Source: a virus | Reading direction: 5' to 3' (one strand) | IMG/VR virus record: IMGVR_UViG_3300023178_000062 | Coordinates: 1 to 53,700 of that record | Length of the DNA stretch: 53,700 bases | Notes under the pieces: model-generated | The model's input: the letters and a program-made list of their open reading frames with translations, nothing else | Database searches by the model: none | Told to the model about the DNA's origin: nothing | In this document: in pieces, positions 12,428-51,465 of the stretch | How positions within the stretch are numbered: the stretch's first letter is position 1 | How the letters are laid out: each line of letters begins with the position of its first letter | Translations under genes and position numbers: made by a program

Positions 12428-12435
12428 TATAAATA
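12428..12435 (+). promoter_or_regulatory. T4-type late promoter TATAAATA upstream of gp8
   Basis: A perfect TATAAATA octamer lies in the 56-bp gap before gp8. T4-like phages read such motifs with the gp55 late sigma factor, and marine cyanomyoviruses use the relaxed form NATAAATA. Transcription would begin a few bases downstream, giving a leader of about 30 nt that contains the strong ribosome site GAGAGGA at 12464-12470. Confidence 0.8.
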
Positions 12436-12472: not shown

Positions 12473-14512
12473 ATGAGCGCACTTATCACAGACAAGTTTA
12501 GAGTATATAATGCCAAGCAATTCTTGGAATCGTTTGATGAAGCGGTTGGAACTGAGCACTTCTTCTTCGTCGGTCGCTCAAAGGACTGGGCTTCGGTCGT
12601 AGAATTTTACGGACTCAGTGGTACGGGACCAAATTTGGACGGAACCACACAAATCACTATCGACCAAGGCGGGACGCCGGTAACAGCGACCATCGTTGGT
12701 GGTTTGGAGGGAGCATGGATTGTTACAGGTCTGGATCCAGCTCTCCTCACAACTCTAGCATTCGGTCAAACTATTGACTGGACCGTTCCTGGAGTAGGGT
12801 CTGCACAAGTATTAAAAGTAAGACCAGCAACTGAGGACACTCCTCTCCGTCCCCTAGACAACCTAATCGAAAAATACGATTACTACAGAGAAATTATTGC
12901 TGCCAAGAGAATTTTCAACCAAACAATTGGTGATGGTTCAGCAACTCTTGCTCCAGACGGTAGCTATGTTTCTGCTGTTATCAATCGTCTAGACTACGGT
13001 ATCAATTCTGACTTTACTGACAGAACGGACCCATATGATATGTGGCGTCCTAACTATGCTGCTGACCCAACATTTACCAGACTTTCACAAGGTGCAACCG
13101 GAGAAGCAGGTGTTGCAAACCTTGAGATGATTACTAGAAATAGTCAGTATGAAGTATTCATGTGCATCGATAACAAACCTGATGCAACTGGTCTTGGTAC
13201 TGTTCCTGACCTTCCTGTAACTAACGGACCTCGCTTTGCAGGCGTAGCACCAGTAGCAAATCCTGATACAGCAGGATATCATGCAGCATCTGGTATTTTC
13301 AGAACAAATAGTGGTCAGAGATGGAAGTATCTATATACACTATCCACAACTGATGTTCTAAGATTCCAGTCACAAAGATTTATCCCACTTCGTCCTTTTG
13401 CTGGTGTATCTATTGTTGGACCAGAAGTTGTAACCATTCTTGATGGTGGTTCCGGTTGGGCAGATGGAGTTTACTATACTCCTATTAATGGTGATGGACA
13501 AGTAGATAACTCCAACTTTAAGATTTGTAGATTTGAAGTTACCGGTGGTACTGGTGTAATTTCCGATGCTAGAGTTCTTCTAGGTACTGATACAACACAA
13601 GATGAAACCAATGGTGTAGCAGCATCAACAGCGTATACCTATGCGACAGTTAATCTTGCAGATCAAGGAGTTACTGGTACTGAAAACAGATTCAAAACTG
13701 GTGTATTCACCAGTGCTGATCTGACTGCAGCTGCAACAGTTCCTCCAGCAACACCAGGTGCTCTAGAAGTTGTCATTCCTCCTCAGGGTGGTTATGGTAG
13801 CACTGATGGTCCTACATTCCAAGAGCAACTAAATGCTAAGCGTGTAATGTGTAACATTCGCCTAACATTTGGTGAGGGTGGAGGAGACTTCCCTGTAACT
13901 AACGACTTCAGAAGAATTGGTCTCCTAAGAGATCCTAAAGAGTACAATGGTTCTGGTGGTACAGAAATCACAGGTGCAACTCCAGAAACAGTTAGAAACA
14001 CTTTTGCAGTCAGTTTTGGTGCAGGCACTAGCTATATTGCTAACTTTGTTCCTGATGAAGAGATTGAACAAACTCAAGGAACTGCTGGTGGAGCAGCTCC
14101 AGTCGCTAAAGGAACCGTAGTTGAGTGGTTACCAAATGACCCCAACAACGTATCTCTTGGTGGAAAACTAAGATATTACCAAGATCCTATTCTGCACAGA
14201 GATGAAAATGGTACTGTTAATCCCTTTGTTCCATCAGGCGGAGACGGCGGTGATGTAACTACAGGTGGAGATATTATTGGATCAGTTTCAGGTTCACACC
14301 CCACCACAGATGTTCTAACAACTGCAACCAATGCTTATGGTAGTGGAAACCTACCCGCTGCTCATGACGTTGATGGTGCTACAGTTACTGCTGATATTTT
14401 ATATCCAGAACTAGAACCATATACAGGTGAAATCATCTATGTAGAAAACAGAAGACTAATCACCCGTGCAGAAGACCAAATTGAAGATATTAAACTAGTT
14501 ATTGAGTTCTGA
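12473..14512 (+). CDS. gp8: Baseplate wedge subunit gp8 (679 aa, enlarged)
   Basis: Both ends match T4 gp8. The N-terminus has TDKFRVYNAKQFLESF and FVGRSKDW, like TSKFRTEKMLNFYNSI and TFGRSEPW in T4. The C-terminus has TGEIIYVENRRLITRAEDQ followed by IEDIKLVIEF, like SGEMIYMENRPPIIMAMDQ in T4. In between, DMW, FMCIDNKPD and WKYLYTLS parallel T4 DMW, YRCLDVPD and WEYLFEIP. T4 gp8 is 334 aa, so this copy is about twice as long; the extra sequence includes a GGSGWADG repeat near residue 325 of the kind found in the neighbouring giant proteins. gp8 dimers brace the baseplate wedge onto gp7 and gp10 in T4. The start is supported by the GAGAGGA ribosome site 3 bases upstream and by its own late promoter. 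Confidence 0.93.
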   Translation: MSALITDKFRVYNAKQFLESFDEAVGTEHFFFVGRSKDWASVVEFYGLSGTGPNLDGTTQITIDQGGTPVTATIVGGLEGAWIVTGLDPALLTTLAFGQTIDWTVPGVGSAQVLKVRPATEDTPLRPLDNLIEKYDYYREIIAAKRIFNQTIGDGSATLAPDGSYVSAVINRLDYGINSDFTDRTDPYDMWRPNYAADPTFTRLSQGATGEAGVANLEMITRNSQYEVFMCIDNKPDATGLGTVPDLPVTNGPRFAGVAPVANPDTAGYHAASGIFRTNSGQRWKYLYTLSTTDVLRFQSQRFIPLRPFAGVSIVGPEVVTILDGGSGWADGVYYTPINGDGQVDNSNFKICRFEVTGGTGVISDARVLLGTDTTQDETNGVAASTAYTYATVNLADQGVTGTENRFKTGVFTSADLTAAATVPPATPGALEVVIPPQGGYGSTDGPTFQEQLNAKRVMCNIRLTFGEGGGDFPVTNDFRRIGLLRDPKEYNGSGGTEITGATPETVRNTFAVSFGAGTSYIANFVPDEEIEQTQGTAGGAAPVAKGTVVEWLPNDPNNVSLGGKLRYYQDPILHRDENGTVNPFVPSGGDGGDVTTGGDIIGSVSGSHPTTDVLTTATNAYGSGNLPAAHDVDGATVTADILYPELEPYTGEIIYVENRRLITRAEDQIEDIKLVIEF

Positions 14513-14530: not shown

Positions 14531-14538
14531 TATAAATA
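14531..14538 (+). promoter_or_regulatory. T4-type late promoter CTATAAATA upstream of the DUF4815-type gene
   Basis: A perfect TATAAATA preceded by C sits in the short gap after gp8 and about 33 bases before the next ATG. It matches the cyanophage late consensus. It probably drives the block beginning with the 2534-aa structural gene. Confidence 0.8.
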
Positions 14539-17500: not shown

Positions 17501-20500
17501 ATAATCCAACATCTTCATTAATTTTCCAAACTGGCAGTAAATCTGTTGCTTCTCTTGTTAGAGATATTACCGATTCCAAAATTAGTTATTTCTTTAGAAG
17601 AGATTTTGTTGCTACAGGTTCATCTTCGGGTGGTTCCCTAACTTTTGCTGCTCAACTTCCATACGGAACTCAGAGATTTGTCTCCTTTACAAAGAACAAT
17701 TATGTAATGACTGTTTTGGATCCTGGCGTGGGTGATGTAGTTAATTTCCAAAAAGGTGATATAGTATACATTAGAGATGAGTACATTGATATAGAAAATT
17801 CTACAGATGAGTCTAGTGGATTAGTTGCTGGTACTGCAACAATTACTTTCCCAACTGATTATTTTGGGGAAAATATGTCTACTTACCCTAAGGTAAAATT
17901 AACTGCATCTCTTGAAGTAAGTAAAGCAAAACCAAAATTAAAAACATCCGTAAAAAATAAAAGAATTATTGTTACTTCATCAAACGATAATGTTATTCCA
18001 TTAAGAGGTAATGATTATGATTCTGGAGACATTGGAATTTTCTCATATTCCGATGTATATAAATTAGCATATGTTTATGAAGGTTCATTAACTGAACCAC
18101 CAAAAGTTGATTCTAGTGGACAATTAATTTCAGGAAAAGATGTTACCGACAGATTTATTTTTGATGATGGGCAACGTCCTTCTTACTATGATGTCTCTAG
18201 ACTCATTTTAAAACCAGGGGAGCAGGCACCAACTGGTAGGTTGGTTGTTGGTTTTGATTATTTTGAGCATTCCCAAGGAGAATTTTGCACTGTTGATTCT
18301 TATGTACATGAGTCTGGTGTTGACATTAATGACATTCCTTACTACAATTTACCTTCCGGAAGGGTTTCTCTTTCCGACGTAATTGATTTTAGACCTAAAG
18401 TAGATACAACTGTAGTAACTAGTGGTTTCCAAGATGGATCTATTTTGGCAAATCTAGATTATATTTCTTTTGATAAATCTGGCGGTGTCCCATCAGTTTC
18501 TCCTGCTCCAGATAGTAATCTAGAGTACACTGTAAAATTTGATGAGGTAAGTTATCTTAATAGAATTGATGCTTTGTTTATTGATAAAACTGGCGAATTT
18601 ATTATCAAAAAAGGAAATTCATCTAAGAATCCATCTAAACCTGATAGTGTAGAAGATTCAATTCCTTTATATTACATCTATCTTCCAGCATTATCACAAA
18701 ATTCAGAAGACATTAAAATTGTGCCTGTCGATAATCGCAGATACACAATGCGTGATATCGGCAAGTTAGAAAAGAGAATTGAAAGACTAGAATATTACAC
18801 TGCGTTGAGTATTCTTGAACAACAGGCATTGAACATGCAGATTAAGGATTCTCTAGGATTTGATAGATTTAAGGGTGGATTCTTAGTAGATAATTTTGAA
18901 AGTCATGGAGTTGGTGACGTAGAATCTTCCGAGTATGTTTGTGCTATTGATCCACAACAGTCAGTTTTAAGAGCACAAGTTTATGAAGATAATATCAAAC
19001 TTGTGGAAGCAAATACCAGAGAAGATGAAAGATTCTTTGCTGGATATCAAAAAACTGGTAACGTTATTTCGCTTCCATATACATCAACATCATTAGTTGG
19101 AAACAATTCTGCTACAAAGACTATTAATCCAAACCCATTTGTTGTTTTACAATACGTTGGAGAAATTCACATTACTCCAAACGTAGACCAGTGGTTTGAC
19201 AGCACTATTGTTCCATTGGTTACAAATAACAATACCAATTTGTTTAATGTATATATTGCGAAGAAAAATGACCCGCAGAATGCAATTGCTTCTATTTACA
19301 ATTCATTTATAATCTCCTGGAGTGGTGTTGATACTGCGTTTAATTCTATAAATTCAGTATCTACTAACAATACAAATTTTGCTGAATCTAGCACAACTAA
19401 CTCTTTAGTAGCAAGTTCTTCTAATGTAAGTCCAAACAATAATAATCTTGGAAAAGGATTATCTTCTGAGGTTAAAAATGGTGTTGCAATTTCTACTGAC
19501 ATTCAATTCTTTGCTCGTAGCATTCCAGTTAAATTTGTTGTTACGAGAATGAAACCAAGAACTACTATCTATCCATTTATTGATGGTAGAGACGTAAGTA
19601 GATGGACTATTCCTGATTCTGATTTTACCGGTATTCCAAGTTCTTCACTATCAACATTTGGTTCCACAATAACCACAGATGATGCTGGTAACGCTAGTGG
19701 TATAATTTTACTACCAGCTGGATTTGCACCAGTTCAAGGAACCTCTTGGACAGGAAATATTCTTGACGTTGTTTACGATGAGGGTTCAGAAAAACTCAAT
19801 TTGGTATCTGGTAAAAAAACTATTAGATTTACTTCAAGTCAAACAAATGAGCAAAAAGATGTAGTTGATTCTTATGCTGAGGTTGTATTCTATTCACAAG
19901 GAACTAAACCACAGAATCCACCATCTATAATTTCCACACAACCTTCTCTATTCAAATCAAATGAAGGAATTCAATTTGTGGAAAGCAATACAGATAATCC
20001 AATAAAACCAAATCCTTTAGCACAGACTTTTAGAATAGAAAATTTTGATGGTGGTGTATTTGCGACAGGTATAGATCTATTCTTCAGTAAGAAAAGTTCT
20101 AGTATACCAGTAAAAGTATATTTAACTGATGTTAATATTGGAAAACCCGGAAAAAATATTATTCCAGGAACACAAAAAATATTATTACCCAAAACCTATT
20201 TGAAAGTTACTTCAACTGGTTCTATAACAATTAGAAATGATGATTTAATTTCTGGTGTAACTTCAGGTTCAATTGGACCTCTTGAAAAAATCTTGGATAG
20301 AAATGGAAATGAAGTTACTCTAATTGGCGGAGTAAATTATAACCTAACTAACGAACAAGTATACACTTTTGTTCTATCAAATCATAATGGTAAGTCATTT
20401 ATTCAAGACGAAGCATTATCTTCAGCATCAATTACTTCCTATAATAATACAAACAATACAAATATTCAACTAAAAATTACTAAAGATTATGGTAAAATTT

Positions 20501-47094: not shown

Positions 47095-47922
47095 ATGGCT
47101 CAACCATCAACTCGGGCAGAGTTCACTGACTATTGCTTAAGGAAACTTGGTGCTCCTGTATTAGAAATTAACGTAGATGACGATCAAGTTGATGACTTGA
47201 TTGATGATGCTATCCAATTCTATCAGGAGTATCATTATGATGGTGTAGAAAAGATGTATCTCAAGCATCAACTTACAGCAGATGAACTAACTAGATTTAA
47301 AAGTTCAAATCAAAATACTATTGCTGGAGATGACAATCCAGCACCAGTGACAACGGACACTTGGATTGAAAGAGATAATTATCTACAAGTACCGGACCAT
47401 GTGATTGGTATTTCTAAAGTGTGGGGACTATCTAGCAGTACAATTAGAGGTAATTTATTTGGACTTACATATAGATTATTTTTAAATGATTTGTATTCTT
47501 TTGGTTCAGTTGATTTACTGAACTATTACATGGTAAAACAATATCTAGAAACTATTGATATGGTAATCAATAGTGGTTCTCTTGTTGGATTTAGATTTAA
47601 TAAGAGACAAGATAGATTATATGTTGATATCGACCCATCATTTCTTACAGCAGATGATTTTCTTATTATTGAATGCCATCGTGCATTAGACCCAGCATCT
47701 TGGACTCAAGTATGGAATGATAGTTTCCTCAAGAAGTATGCTACTGCTCTCATCAAGAGACAGTGGGGACAGAACATGATTAAGTTCAACAACGTTCAAC
47801 TCCCAGGCGGTATCACAATGAATGGACGCCAGTTATATGAGGATGGCAACATGGAAGTGTTGGCATTAGAAGAGAAGATGATGTCACATTATCAATTACC
47901 ACCCCTAGATATGATCGGATGA
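47095..47922 (+). CDS. gp13: Neck protein gp13 (275 aa)
   Basis: The N-terminus (MAQPSTRAEFTDYCLRKLGA, then PVLEINVDDDQVDDLIDDAI and QFYQEYHYDG) is the typical start of gp13 in T4-like cyanophages. T4 gp13 is 309 aa and, with gp14, forms the head-completion and neck complex that seals the filled head and accepts the tail. Order 13-14-15-16 is kept downstream with a one-base gap to gp14. The start is supported by a late promoter immediately upstream. Nothing in the sequence looks truncated. Confidence 0.95.
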   Translation: MAQPSTRAEFTDYCLRKLGAPVLEINVDDDQVDDLIDDAIQFYQEYHYDGVEKMYLKHQLTADELTRFKSSNQNTIAGDDNPAPVTTDTWIERDNYLQVPDHVIGISKVWGLSSSTIRGNLFGLTYRLFLNDLYSFGSVDLLNYYMVKQYLETIDMVINSGSLVGFRFNKRQDRLYVDIDPSFLTADDFLIIECHRALDPASWTQVWNDSFLKKYATALIKRQWGQNMIKFNNVQLPGGITMNGRQLYEDGNMEVLALEEKMMSHYQLPPLDMIG

Positions 47923-47923
47923 T

Positions 47924-48868
47924 ATGCCTACCAGTCACTACTTTCCGCTGTACTACAAAAATGATGGCAGCGAGCAAAATTTATATCAAGATTTAGTAGA
48001 CGAACAGATACGTCTGTTTGGTAGCGACATCTATTATATCACAAGAAAAACAATACGAGACCAGGCATTAAATCAGATTGTCTTCTCAGAGTTTAGTGAG
48101 AAGATTGTTATCGAAGCTATGCTACAGAACGTAGAAGGTTTTGGAAATCAATCTGAGTTCATCAGCAAGTTTGGTTTAAGAGTTACGGACGAGATTACAT
48201 TTACGATGTCAGTTCGTAGGTGGGAACAGGAATCCACACGCCTGAATAATCTAGAGGTGGAGTCTAGACCTAATGAAGGCGACTTAATCTTTTTCCCATT
48301 GACAGGTGATTTGTATGAGATTAAGTTTGTCGAAAGAGAAGCGCCATTCTATCAGTTAGGCAAACTATATTTCTTCACAATGACCTGTGAAATCTACGAG
48401 GTTGGTAGTGAAGACATTGATACTGGTATTCCTGAGATAGACGACATTGAAGCAGACAACGATTATGCCATTAGTTTTGTTCTTGCTGATGGAGGCACTG
48501 GTAATTATTATATTGGTGATAAAGTTGAATTCTATACTGACGTAGTTGTTGGTAATCTAGCAAATCCAACTGGTATCAAGGGTGAAGTATCTGACTGGGA
48601 TGCTCCATCCAGAAGACTTGAACTCATTAATGTTACTGGTGATTGGGATGAAACTTATTATGTTGGTAGAGAATCCGGTGCAGATACAAATGTAAATACA
48701 ACAGATGGTATATATCAGTTAGGAACTCAGGCAGAATTTACTGATATAGATGACGCCAATACTGACTTTGATGATAATAAATACATTGAAGAAGCTGCGG
48801 ATGATATTCTGTTATGGACGGAAGAAAATCCTTTTGGCGAAGTCGGTAATCTAAATGGTAACTTCTGA
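47924..48868 (+). CDS. gp14: Neck protein gp14 (314 aa)
   Basis: The gp14 family pattern is clear at the N-terminus (SHYFPLYYKNDGSEQNLYQD ... IRLFGSDIYYITRK) and in the middle (SEFISKFGLRVTDEITFTMS, VRRWEQE). gp14 partners gp13 at the head-tail joint. The C-terminal part (about residues 165-314) is acidic and Asp/Asn-rich, ending ENPFGEVGNLNGNF. T4 gp14 is 256 aa, so this copy carries additional C-terminal sequence. The stop TGA shares one base with the gp15 ATG (48868), indicating coupling. Confidence 0.95.
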   Translation: MPTSHYFPLYYKNDGSEQNLYQDLVDEQIRLFGSDIYYITRKTIRDQALNQIVFSEFSEKIVIEAMLQNVEGFGNQSEFISKFGLRVTDEITFTMSVRRWEQESTRLNNLEVESRPNEGDLIFFPLTGDLYEIKFVEREAPFYQLGKLYFFTMTCEIYEVGSEDIDTGIPEIDDIEADNDYAISFVLADGGTGNYYIGDKVEFYTDVVVGNLANPTGIKGEVSDWDAPSRRLELINVTGDWDETYYVGRESGADTNVNTTDGIYQLGTQAEFTDIDDANTDFDDNKYIEEAADDILLWTEENPFGEVGNLNGNF

Positions 48869-49704
48869 TGTTTGGAACTGAATACTATCATAGAGCTATA
48901 GACAATACCGTAAAAGGTTTTGGTACGCTCTTCAACAATATAAAAATTGTTAGGAAAGATCCCACTACAGGAGAAGTTCTACAGAAGCAGCGTGTGCCTT
49001 TGGCATATGGTCCTAGAGCAAAGTTTGAAACTAGATTAGAACAGAATCCAGAACTACAGAAGAAGGCAATTACTTTGCCATTCATGTATTTTGAGATGAC
49101 TGGTTTGAGTAGAGATTCATCTAAGCAACTACCACCTATCACAAAAATTTTAGCACCACAAACAGATGAGTCTGGAAACAACACTGGTATATCTGAGCAG
49201 TATGTTCCTGTAGCATATGACTTTGATTTTGAAGTAGGATTTATGGTGAAGGATACCTACGAAGGTAATCAAATACTAGAACAGATTCTACCATTCTTCC
49301 AACCATACTATAACATCACTATCAACTTCATTCCTGATATGAATGAATATAAGGATGTTAAAATTAATCTAAGTAGTGTTGATTATGAAGATGACTGGTT
49401 GGATGATTTTAGTGACAGAAGAAAGATTACATACACACTTAGATTTGTAGTCAAGTCATACATCTACGGACCTTACACCAAGGCAGATACAATCAAGAAA
49501 GCAACAATCTTCGAGACTGCTGGTGGTCTTGGCACTCCAAGAAGAGCAGTCAAGCGTGTCACTGAGGTTGAACCGCTCAAGGATTACGATGGTGATGGTG
49601 ATATCGATACCGCAGATAGAGACCTAGTATCTCCAGCAGATACTTTTGATGATGATTACGGATTTAGCTTTGATGTATTTGAAGGAGATGATGCACAGTC
49701 ATGA
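48868..49704 (+). CDS. gp15: Tail sheath stabilizer / tail terminator gp15 (278 aa)
   Basis: Length is close to T4 gp15 (272 aa). The start MFGTEYYHRAIDN ... GTLFNNIKIVRKD parallels T4 MFGYFYNSSFRRY ... GDLFSNIQIKRQ. The stretch ILEQILPFFQPYYNITINFI matches T4 IVEQILPYFQPHFNTT, and DFSDRRKITYTLRFVVKSYI matches T4 LSRRRIEWSLTFEVNGWM. gp15 forms the hexameric ring that terminates the tail tube and sheath and connects to the neck. The stop overlaps the gp16 ATG (ATGA at 49701). Confidence 0.95.
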   Translation: MFGTEYYHRAIDNTVKGFGTLFNNIKIVRKDPTTGEVLQKQRVPLAYGPRAKFETRLEQNPELQKKAITLPFMYFEMTGLSRDSSKQLPPITKILAPQTDESGNNTGISEQYVPVAYDFDFEVGFMVKDTYEGNQILEQILPFFQPYYNITINFIPDMNEYKDVKINLSSVDYEDDWLDDFSDRRKITYTLRFVVKSYIYGPYTKADTIKKATIFETAGGLGTPRRAVKRVTEVEPLKDYDGDGDIDTADRDLVSPADTFDDDYGFSFDVFEGDDAQS

Positions 49705-50117
49705 ACGAATTTGAAAAGAGTATGGAAGAGACCTTTGACATTGAAGTGGCAAAGGAAGAACCTATTGAAAAATTTAAGCAAGCAAAGAAACGAGCAGAGG
49801 ACAACCACCAGGACAAGGACTACGAATACGTTCGTGGTTCTCTCTATGACCTCATTGAGAAGGGTCAGGAAGCAGTCAATGGTGCTCTAGAGATCGCACA
49901 GGAGTCGGGTCATCCTAGAGCGTATGAGGTGGCGGGCAACCTCATCAAGCAGACCACAGAGATGGCAGAGAAACTGACTGACTTGCATAAGAAGATGAAG
50001 GATTTGGATGAAGATAAATCTGGTCCTAAGACAGTCACAAATAATAACTCGATGTTTATTGGCAGCACTTCTGATTTACAAAAAATGCTTAAGTCAATGG
50101 GCGTAAAGAATAAATAA
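49701..50117 (+). CDS. gp16: Terminase small subunit gp16 (138 aa)
   Basis: Residues about 65-138 contain SGHPRAYEVAGNLIKQTTEM, LTDLHKKMKDL and MFIGSTSDLQKML, which parallel T4 gp16 ADSPRHMEVFATLMGQMT, ILKLHKDMKDI and VFMGSPTELM. The protein is mostly helical and charged, as expected for the ring-forming DNA-recognition subunit that regulates the gp17 motor. It is 26 residues shorter than T4 gp16, mostly at the ends. In T4, genes 16 and 17 are adjacent; here six ORFs separate them. Confidence 0.93.
   Translation: MNEFEKSMEETFDIEVAKEEPIEKFKQAKKRAEDNHQDKDYEYVRGSLYDLIEKGQEAVNGALEIAQESGHPRAYEVAGNLIKQTTEMAEKLTDLHKKMKDLDEDKSGPKTVTNNNSMFIGSTSDLQKMLKSMGVKNK
50109..50116 (+). promoter_or_regulatory. 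Late-promoter-like AATAAATA at the gp16 stop
   Basis: A perfect NATAAATA match overlapping the gp16 stop codon, but only 10 bases before the next ATG in an A-rich run. The leader would be only a few bases long, so this may be chance composition. Confidence 0.35.
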
Positions 50118-50126
50118 AAATAAAAA

Positions 50127-50384
50127 ATGTCTTACATCAGACACGACGAAAATAATGATCCCGTTGTACCACAACCATCATCAACATCAGTAACCATTTA
50201 TAGTGGCACTGAGGGATGGACTGATATTACATATGAAGATTGGAATGCTGATTATATTGCCAGAAATGTTGACAATAGTGTGAGAACTCCTGGTGTGTAT
50301 CAGGCAAGAAATGCTGATAATACACCAAGAACTCCAGCAGCATATCAAAGACACGACAAAGATAACAATCCGGTATTAATCTAA
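50127..50384 (+). CDS. Small protein with 15-residue tandem repeats (85 aa)
   Basis: Residues 43-57, 58-72 and 73-85 form three units of a 15-residue repeat of type Y-[IQ]-A-R-N-x-D-N-x-x-R-T-P. A related unit occurs at residues 3-15 (YIRHDENNDPVVP). The protein is hydrophilic with no membrane segment or signal peptide. No named family was recognised. It is followed by a one-base overlap (TAATG) with the 265-aa structural gene, so co-expression is likely; a late virion or DNA-packaging-associated role is conjecture. Confidence 0.72.
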   Translation: MSYIRHDENNDPVVPQPSSTSVTIYSGTEGWTDITYEDWNADYIARNVDNSVRTPGVYQARNADNTPRTPAAYQRHDKDNNPVLI

Positions 50385-51181
50385 TGGCACAATGGAATAA
50401 AGATACGCAAGACTATAGGGCACAGGACACTACCAACTTTGAAGTAGTGATGCTGGCAGACCAGAATGGCAATCCATTGAATAGTTATGGTGCTGCTGCT
50501 AACATTCCTATTGCTGCTGGACTGTTAGAAGGATATTCACACATCAATAAGTTTGGATTTAGAGATACTATTGCTAATTCTTGGCAAACCATCTGGGATA
50601 AAGCAACAGATTATGCATACTATGCTGCCGCTACAGTAACTGCAGTTGCAGATAATGCTGGTCAGGGCACGACTGATGATGGCGGAACTGTAGAGGTTCA
50701 GGGTTTAGATGAAAACTATGCTCCAGTAACAGAAACGTTGACTATTGGTGGTGCTGCATCAGTAGCACAATTCTCCAGAGTGTTCCGTGCAAGAATGATT
50801 ACTCCAAATACTGGCACAACTAATGATGATGAAATTAGAATTAAAAATGGTGTCAATGATGTAGCAGTAATTATTGCTGGTGCTGGTCAAACTTTGATGT
50901 CCTTATATACGATCCCTGCTGGCAAGACAGGATATTTGATGAAACTTCAAGGTTCTATTGATGCTAACAATGATGCTCTGTTTAGATTGTATGCAAGACC
51001 TTTTGGTGGAGCATTTAATGTTAAAGGTCAGTTTGGAGTATTTGCTTCTGGGTTCAACTATGACTATCCAGTTCCTTTAAGATTTGAAGAGAAAACAGAT
51101 ATAGAAATAAAAGGTCTATCTCAAAATGGTGTAGGTGGTGGAGCAATCTTTGATATTATACTTGTAGATAACGAGGTATAA
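50384..51181 (+). CDS. Phage virion structural protein (265 aa)
   Basis: The pattern is familiar from uncharacterised phage structural proteins: INKFGFRDTIANSWQTIWDK, GTVEVQGLDENYAPVTETLT and an IPAGKTGYLMKLQGSIDANN segment. The C-terminal half (FNYDYPVPLRFEEKTDIEIK) completes a beta-rich fold. No T4 homologue was recognised. It has no signal peptide or catalytic motif. The ATG shares one base with the upstream stop. Its place inside the gp16-gp17 interval is unusual for a tail-type protein. Confidence 0.8.
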   Translation: MAQWNKDTQDYRAQDTTNFEVVMLADQNGNPLNSYGAAANIPIAAGLLEGYSHINKFGFRDTIANSWQTIWDKATDYAYYAAATVTAVADNAGQGTTDDGGTVEVQGLDENYAPVTETLTIGGAASVAQFSRVFRARMITPNTGTTNDDEIRIKNGVNDVAVIIAGAGQTLMSLYTIPAGKTGYLMKLQGSIDANNDALFRLYARPFGGAFNVKGQFGVFASGFNYDYPVPLRFEEKTDIEIKGLSQNGVGGGAIFDIILVDNEV

Positions 51182-51184
51182 ATA
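51177..51184 (+). promoter_or_regulatory. TATAAATA motif overlapping the DUF6321 gene start
   Basis: A perfect octamer, but it includes the stop codon of the upstream gene and the first base of the next ATG. A transcript from it would start inside the DUF6321 gene, so it cannot serve that gene's own full-length translation. It could serve downstream genes or be coincidental; GAGG at 51173-51176 is the likely ribosome site. Confidence 0.3.
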
Positions 51185-51465
51185 TGAAGTCGTTTAAGCA
51201 ATTCAGGAATGAGCTCAACGAATCAGCCTGGACCAGAAAAGAAGGACAAAATAAGTCCGGAGGACTTAACGAAAAAGGACGAAAGTCTTATGAAAAGGAG
51301 AATCCAGGATCAGACCTTAAAGCACCAAGCAAGAAGGTTGGAAATCCCAGGAGGGCATCCTTCTGCGCTAGAATGAAAGGAATGAAGAAGAAACTTACTA
51401 GCAAGAAGACTGCTAATGATAAGGATTCTAGAATTAATAAATCACTACGAGCCTGGAATTGCTAG
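51184..51465 (+). CDS. DUF6321 protein with capsid-targeting-like N-terminus (93 aa)
   Basis: Residues 15-93 (AWTRKEGQNKSGGLNEKGRK, ... ENPGSDLKAPSKK, ... FCARMKGMKKKLTSKKTAND, ... SRINKSLRAWNC) are characteristic of DUF6321, a small basic phage domain of unknown function. The first 13 residues, MKSFKQFRNELNE, resemble the T4 capsid-targeting peptide MKTYQEFIAE of internal head proteins, and LNE fits the gp21 prohead protease consensus (L/I-x-E). This suggests an internal head protein, cleaved after E13 and possibly ejected with DNA; that is inference. The protein is strongly Lys/Arg-rich. A GAGG ribosome site precedes the ATG. Confidence 0.85.
   Translation: MKSFKQFRNELNESAWTRKEGQNKSGGLNEKGRKSYEKENPGSDLKAPSKKVGNPRRASFCARMKGMKKKLTSKKTANDKDSRINKSLRAWNC

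What the first reader, a model, noticed from the sequence alone, without database searches (positions are those of the whole stretch)
51184..51465. DUF6321 protein may be an internal head protein delivered with the genome
Its first ten residues, MKSFKQFRNE, align with the T4 capsid-targeting peptide MKTYQEFIAE, and L11-N12-E13 fits the prohead protease rule L/I-x-E. Cleavage would leave a very basic 80-residue DUF6321 domain. That would give this unknown family a plausible role: packaged in the capsid and injected into the host early.
Basis: partly seen in the sequence, partly recalled or inferred. Interest (0 to 1): 0.68.

Follow-up and report, generated by a model that had tools for sequence, protein, structure and literature searches.

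The report
Capsid-targeted DUF6321 protein of a cyanophage
A small, very basic protein of a marine cyanobacterial virus starts with the same kind of address tag that phage T4 uses to load proteins into its head, and the tag is conserved only in relatives of T4, so it is probably packed with the viral DNA; the same tag sits on virus enzymes already found inside purified particles.

Summary
The ORF is real (51184-51465, +, 93 aa, DUF6321 at aa 22-91) in a T4-like cyanomyovirus fragment. MKSFKQF scores 25 against the T4 IP heptads; 0/5111 internal-Met heptads do, and in T4 only IPI, IPII, IPIII and gp61.1 do. Among stand-alone DUF6321 proteins the tag goes with T4-like genes (28/31 tagged loci carry them); none of 34 untagged loci, which start MAK(S/T)P directly on the domain, does. 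A Glu just before the domain is kept in 98/101 distinct T4-like contexts at variable spacing. DUF6321-containing proteins are on the virion lists of S-CREM2 and S-SCSM1. Independently, CTS-like N-termini mark virion-detected cyanophage enzymes (NMNAT/cytidylyltransferase, SAM lyase; 6/9 against 110/725, p=0.0008). Packaging is likely; cleavage at E13 is probable; injection and the domain's own activity are untested.

The parts
51184..51465 (+). DUF6321 protein, 93 aa, predicted CTS-bearing internal head protein
51173..51176 (+). Shine-Dalgarno-like GAGG before the ATG
51184..51204 (+). targeting heptad MKSFKQF (compare T4 IPI MKTFKEF, IPII/IPIII MKTYQEF)
51184..51222 (+). predicted 13-residue propeptide MKSFKQFRNELNE
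   Evidence: sequence; T4 IP propeptides are 10-19 aa (PMC9026906)
51214..51222 (+). predicted prohead-protease site L11-N12-E13
51223..51462 (+). predicted mature protein S14-C93, 80 aa, pI about 10.5
51247..51456 (+). DUF6321 domain (PF19846); Cys61 is inside it, the conserved Cys93 just after it
51265..51273 (+). second L-x-E (L28-N29-E30) inside the domain, a possible further or decoy site
50384..51181 (+). upstream gene, 265 aa (phrog_8198); homologues on virion lists (S-CREM2 ORF176, 52% identity; S-SCSM1_31, 35%)
50127..50384 (+). 85-aa protein of unknown function (phrog_17325)
49701..50117 (+). gp16, terminase small subunit
48868..49704 (+). gp15, tail sheath stabiliser
47924..48868 (+). 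gp14 neck protein
47095..47922 (+). gp13 neck protein (head-tail adaptor)

Best explanation
The protein is a T4-type internal head protein of a marine cyanomyovirus. Residues 1-7 (MKSFKQF) act as a capsid-targeting sequence that binds the prohead core; the phage's gp21-type prohead protease then cuts after L11-N12-E13, leaving the 80-residue basic DUF6321 domain in the mature head with the DNA. It belongs to a wider set of CTS-tagged cargo in these phages (DUF6321 and other basic modules, SAM lyase, NMNAT), which would enter the cell with the genome. Shown by sequence: the tag, its restriction to T4-like phages, the conserved Glu before the domain, and virion detection (literature) of DUF6321-bearing and CTS-bearing relatives. 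Inferred: targeting, cleavage at E13, DNA association and delivery (subjective estimates: packaged 0.75, cleaved at E13 0.65, injected 0.5, DNA-bound in the head 0.5).
For: T4 positive control and internal-Met null. Tag follows T4-like gene content: 28/31 tagged loci have T4 neck/terminase genes and none T7-like ones, 0/34 bare loci have T4 genes; the five records with a Peptidase_S77 (gp21) hit all carry the tagged form. Orthologue N-termini. Glu shortly before the domain in 98/101 distinct contexts, [LIMVF]xE in 72, spacing variable; bare and podoviral forms lack it. DUF6321-bearing S-CREM2 ORF137 (108049-109521, 44.7 bits; 4 unique peptides in PMC10665884) and S-SCSM1_29 (virion protein). 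CTS against virion detection: 6/9 against 110/725, p=0.0008. NMNAT, found in three virions, 52/52 distinct IMG/VR N-termini CTS-like. CTS + SAM lyase + DUF6321 in one protein (L202). Head-gene neighbourhood in unrelated phages.
Against: No virion proteomics of this phage, and no positive result for any stand-alone DUF6321 protein; S-SZBM1_192 (MKTFKQYITEA..., CTS plus DUF6321) was not detected, nor were the tagged S-SZBM1_191 and S-SCSM1_30. For this protein a negative would be weak: only three tryptic peptides of 7 aa or more, one across the predicted cut. Virion detection of ORF137 and S-SCSM1_29 concerns large forms without an N-terminal tag and does not separate head from neck or tail. The gp21 gene of this phage is not in the 53.7-kb fragment. 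The strict CTS pattern was sharpened after a first scan, although that first scan used the T4 sequence alone (4/5 against 43/253, p=0.004). Loci come from a similarity-ranked sample, and related sequences are not independent.
Confidence: 0.72

Rival explanations
1. It is a neck, collar or tail-associated structural protein, and the CTS resemblance is incidental: DUF6321 is the C-terminal part of proteins annotated as structural and sits between the neck/terminase genes.
For: Gene order gp13-gp14-gp15-gp16-X-X-DUF6321; S-P4 homologue annotated structural protein beside a YadA-domain structural protein; the upstream gene has homologues on virion lists.
Against: The N-terminal tag has the T4 IP heptad and a following Leu-x-Glu, is found only with T4-like genes, and is shared with enzymes that are unlikely neck parts (NMNAT, SAM lyase). 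In T7-like phages the domain gene sits near scaffold and major capsid genes.
Confidence: 0.15
2. It is a non-virion, intracellular DNA-binding or host-takeover protein expressed during infection; the basic domain is what matters and the N-terminal helix is a local fold element.
For: Very basic, conserved Cys pair, no known fold; one CTS-bearing DUF6321 form was not detected in a virion.
Against: Bare forms do without the N-terminal 13 residues, so these are not needed for the domain; the tag is conserved in its targeting positions; DUF6321-bearing proteins are on virion lists.
Confidence: 0.1
3. The N-terminal match is chance within a short basic leader.
For: Ten residues are few; 13.5% of ORFs have an L/I-x-E in the first 16 aa.
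Against: 0/5111 internal-Met heptads score as high; 25/27 distinct orthologue N-termini keep it, bare forms 0/21.
Confidence: 0.03

Closest known systems
T4 internal proteins IPI, IPII, IPIII (capsid-targeting sequence, CTS)
   Same: N-terminal M-K-S/T-F/Y-x-E/Q-F heptad, then L/I-x-E within 10-19 residues, small cargo; the IPI heptad MKTFKEF matches 5/7 with two conservative changes.
   Different: Cargo domain is DUF6321, with no match to any solved structure; in most relatives the cargo is a module of a mosaic protein; host is a cyanobacterium; targeting and cleavage not shown by experiment.
Pfam PF19846 (DUF6321)
   Same: Member above the curated cut-off (83.4 bits).
   Different: A domain of unknown function; no paper in the held library names it. 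The tag lies outside the domain.
phiKZ/SPN3US ejection proteins with prohead-protease propeptides
   Same: Head proteins cut after Glu by a gp21-type protease and ejected with the DNA (PMC9026906, PMC5694885).
   Different: [quoted passage not shown] here 13 residues, of T4 type.
CTS-like cyanophage enzymes found in virions (S-SCSM1 NMNAT, S-CREM2 cytidylyltransferase and SAM hydrolase, S-SZBM1 cytidylyltransferase)
   Same: Same N-terminal tag consensus M-K-S/T-F-x-x-F-L/I/M-x-E.
   Different: Enzymes, not DUF6321; the papers report them as non-structural virion proteins, and the passages I read do not mention a targeting sequence.

Membership tests
T4 CTS-type internal head proteins | N-terminal targeting heptad of IP type | tested here: met
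   Score 25; null 0/5111; T4 control finds IPI-III plus gp61.1
T4 CTS-type internal head proteins | L/I-x-E cleavage site ending a 10-19 residue propeptide | tested here: met
   L11-N12-E13; in orthologues LAE, LTE, ITE, IQE, LNE. A second L-x-E at 28-30 makes the rule ambiguous
T4 CTS-type internal head proteins | Phage encodes a gp21-type prohead protease | tested here: inconclusive
   Not seen in the window, which is a fragment; close relative Sf-FR1 has it (E=1.1e-36), and all five records with a hit carry the tagged DUF6321
T4 CTS-type internal head proteins | Present inside the mature head | tested here: inconclusive
   Large DUF6321 proteins on virion lists of S-CREM2 and S-SCSM1; tagged form of S-SZBM1 not detected
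T4 CTS-type internal head proteins | Propeptide removed by gp21 in vivo | not testable with these tools
   Needs N-terminomics or semi-tryptic peptides
T4 CTS-type internal head proteins | Ejected into the host with the DNA | not testable with these tools
   No infection data
DUF6321 (PF19846) | Profile match above gathering score | tested here: met
   83.4 bits against 28.5

The most novel reading that the evidence does not exclude
Marine cyanomyoviruses run a modular head-loading and delivery system: a T4-like CTS, at the N-terminus or as internal copies, brings mosaic polyproteins into the prohead, where the prohead protease cuts at the hydrophobic-x-Glu linkers before each module and releases many small basic Cys-containing peptides (DUF6321, WPSAY, CW-GY, NIHAKR modules) and enzymes (SAM lyase, NMNAT, a nuclease annotated Cas9) that are injected with the genome, partly as counter-defence.
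Probability: 0.4. Interest if true: 0.82.

Novelty: new member of a known kind. Interest (0 to 1): 0.6.

Why it matters
It would assign an unknown domain found in over 500 sequenced phage records to the head lumen, give the marine T4-like phages a readable capsid-targeting signal, and explain why enzymes such as NMNAT keep turning up in their purified virions. A readable tag would let one list candidate injected proteins of abundant marine myoviruses from sequence alone, and some of these carry SAM-lyase domains that could blunt host restriction at once on entry.

Tried and rejected
Structure: AlphaFold model of 93 aa with 33 sequences, pLDDT 81, pTM 0.50; no PDB match by sequence or fold; BFVD returned essentially DUF6321 proteins only, so no function from fold. 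Plasmids: no match. Genome contigs gave 12 loci, most in MAGs and likely phage contigs; one (L166, titled Nonlabens) has a tagged DUF6321 with T4-like gp17. L/I-x-E alone rejected as evidence (13.5% background). TATAAATA at 51177-51184 considered as a T4-type late promoter: it overlaps the start codon, so it is unlikely to serve this ORF, and the octamer is not enriched in the window (3 found, 6.65 expected). An internal SWREEL-x-E motif was seen in mosaic proteins but not tested statistically. The S-SM1 proteome table could not be read (supplement of PMC3037559). First genome-fetch requests failed on region length and were repeated; one script failed on a missing file name and one stopped at the last set (earlier sets valid).

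Full report
Observation. The ORF 51184-51465 (+) encodes 93 aa, MKSFKQFRNELNESAWTRKEGQ...RAWNC, after a GAGG site. Pfam DUF6321 covers aa 22-91. The window is the whole 53.7-kb record of a viral fragment with gp13, gp14, gp15 and gp16 homologues just upstream and plastocyanin downstream: a T4-like cyanomyovirus. The gene directly upstream (50384-51181) has homologues on the virion lists of S-CREM2 (ORF176, 52% identity, 20 peptides) and S-SCSM1.

Is the N-terminal match real? T4 sequences were read from NC_000866: IPII and IPIII start MKTYQEFIAEA, IPI starts MKTFKEFTSTTTPVSTITEA. Scoring the first seven residues of predicted ORFs of six cyanophages, T4 and the window against these heptads, the window protein scores 25. 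In T4 only IPI, IPII, IPIII and gp61.1 reach that; 0 of 5111 internal-Met heptads do. The L/I-x-E rule by itself is weak: 13.5% of ORFs have one in the first 16 residues, and this protein has a second at 28-30 inside the domain.

Orthologues. 516 phage records match at E<=0.01, mostly cyanophages. IMG/VR and GTDB loci give two kinds of stand-alone protein. One has a short extension such as MKNYKEFKELAE-A, MKSYSELKNLTE-A, MKSFKQLRSDITE-A. The other starts MAK(S/T)P directly on AWTRKEG. With gene neighbours typed by tblastn, 28 of 31 loci of the first kind carry T4-like neck or terminase genes and none T7-like genes; of 34 loci of the second kind none carries T4-like genes. Peptidase_S77 (gp21) was found in five of 52 records, all of the first kind; absence in fragments proves nothing. 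25 of 27 distinct N-termini of the first group score 15 or more, none of 21 bare ones. T7-like phages have basic leaders instead (MAQKKNVRLKMGKHKSR), with the gene near scaffold, major capsid or tail-tube genes; in freshwater phages of another type it also lies near the major head gene.

The boundary. In 101 distinct contexts, leaving out the bare forms, the domain is preceded by Glu within five residues in 98, and by [LIMVF]-x-E in 72. The Glu stays while its distance to the domain varies (LNE-S-AW, LDE-GA-AW, VTE-ASA-AW, MSE-AKSA-AW, LNE-DW). In mosaic proteins other modules behave the same way: [LIMVF]-x-E lies within 10 residues upstream of CW-GY (95%), NIHAKR (100%), HDWF (88%), DUF6321 (63%) and WPSAY (58%) modules against about 20% for random positions in the same proteins. 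That is what a prohead-protease polyprotein would look like, though shared descent of linkers inflates the numbers.

Virion evidence. S-CREM2 ORF137 (108049-109521) carries DUF6321 over the Pfam cut-off (44.7 bits) and was detected with 4 unique peptides (PMC10665884). S-SCSM1_29 (517 aa, DUF6321 at 445-515) is labelled virion protein in its record, whose paper reports 45 virion proteins by MS (PMC9602691). S-SZBM1_192, a tagged DUF6321 protein (MKTFKQYITEA...), is not among the 30 detected proteins (PMC9146016). The window protein has only three tryptic peptides of seven or more residues, one across the predicted cut, so negatives are weak.

An independent test of the tag. Scanning S-CREM2 with the T4 sequence alone, 4 of the 5 N-termini scoring 16 or more belong to virion-detected proteins: cytidylyltransferase MKNFSSFLTEA, SAM hydrolase MKDFDSFLEEF, ORF136 MQTFSMFFSED, ORF13 MKDLHSFLTEQ (p=0.004). 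Pooled with S-SCSM1 (record labels, 48 in my list against 45 in the paper) and S-SZBM1, a stricter pattern gives 6/9 detected against 110/725 (p=0.0008); that pattern was fixed after the first scan, ORF calling missed 5 of 52 detected S-CREM2 genes, and one S-SZBM1 gene (192) was added by hand, which counts against. The cytidylyltransferase/NMNAT, detected in three virions, has the tag in 52 of 52 distinct IMG/VR N-termini, with [LIMVF]-x-E in 50. SAM-lyase proteins have it in 12 of 22 distinct N-termini, those of the stand-alone type, and one IMG/VR protein joins tag, SAM lyase and DUF6321 (L202). Reviews describe T-even internal proteins as diverse defence proteins sharing only the CTS (PMC3012670); the cyanophage set fits that. 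The only paper in the held library with both the phrase capsid targeting sequence and cyanophage is a T4 review.

Mechanism. Likely steps: the heptad binds the prohead core (inferred from T4); gp21 cuts after E13 (inferred from motif and conservation); the basic domain stays with the DNA (inferred from charge and head-gene context); it leaves with the DNA on infection (inferred). The domain's own activity is unknown; the AlphaFold model (pLDDT 81, pTM 0.50) has no PDB match.

Verdict. By sequence a new member of the T4 CTS-type internal protein kind, with cleavage, head location and injection not tested for this protein. The wider point, a CTS-tagged cargo set and Glu-linked mosaic proteins in marine cyanomyoviruses, is the part worth following.

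Noticed in passing
S-CREM2 ORF154 (L113), S-SCSM1 ORF91 (L128), S-SZBM1_140 (L102); IMG/VR L295-L374: The virion-detected cytidylyltransferase/NMNAT of three cyanophages carries an N-terminal CTS-like sequence (MKNFSSFLTE, MKSFLQFLKE, MRFRQFIIE), conserved in 52/52 distinct N-termini; this would explain its presence in virions.
   Followed up: yes
S-CREM2 ORF6 (L107:3837-5081), P-SSM2 99763-100272 (L141), S-SZBM1_194 (L087), L202: SAM-lyase domains (PF23780) follow a CTS-like sequence at the N-terminus or inside a mosaic protein (FITYREFIAE-G in S-SZBM1_194): possible injected anti-restriction.
   Followed up: partly
S-CREM2 ORF12 and ORF14 (L107), NMNATs of P-SSM2 and S-SCSM1: A short module LGLxSDGHGxWxDxxGxxVAxTxxGxLxFY follows the CTS in NMNAT and recurs in two other virion-detected proteins, the one annotated Cas9 nuclease and the APH/ChoK-like kinase.
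   Followed up: partly
L001:4663-6252, L002:4729-6282, L021, L058 and other mosaic proteins: Mosaic proteins built of short basic, Cys-containing modules in variable order and ending in DUF6321, many modules preceded by a hydrophobic-x-Glu linker.
   Followed up: partly
T4 18966-19130 (gp61.1, NC_000866): T4 gp61.1 (hypothetical, 54 aa) begins MKTFKEFIKED, a CTS-type N-terminus as strong as those of IPI-III; possibly a further T4 internal protein.
   Followed up: no
window 12428-12435, 14531-14538, 51177-51184: Three TATAAATA octamers (T4 late promoter type); two lie about 40 bases before the genes at 12473 and 14572, the third overlaps the start codon of the DUF6321 gene.
   Followed up: partly
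S-SZBM1_191 (L087:7312-7629), S-SCSM1_30 (L002:6282-6602): A second small protein (S-SZBM1_191 is phrog_1742) beside DUF6321 genes with a strong CTS (MKSFKSFLSES, MKTFKQFMSES), not detected in either virion proteome.
   Followed up: no
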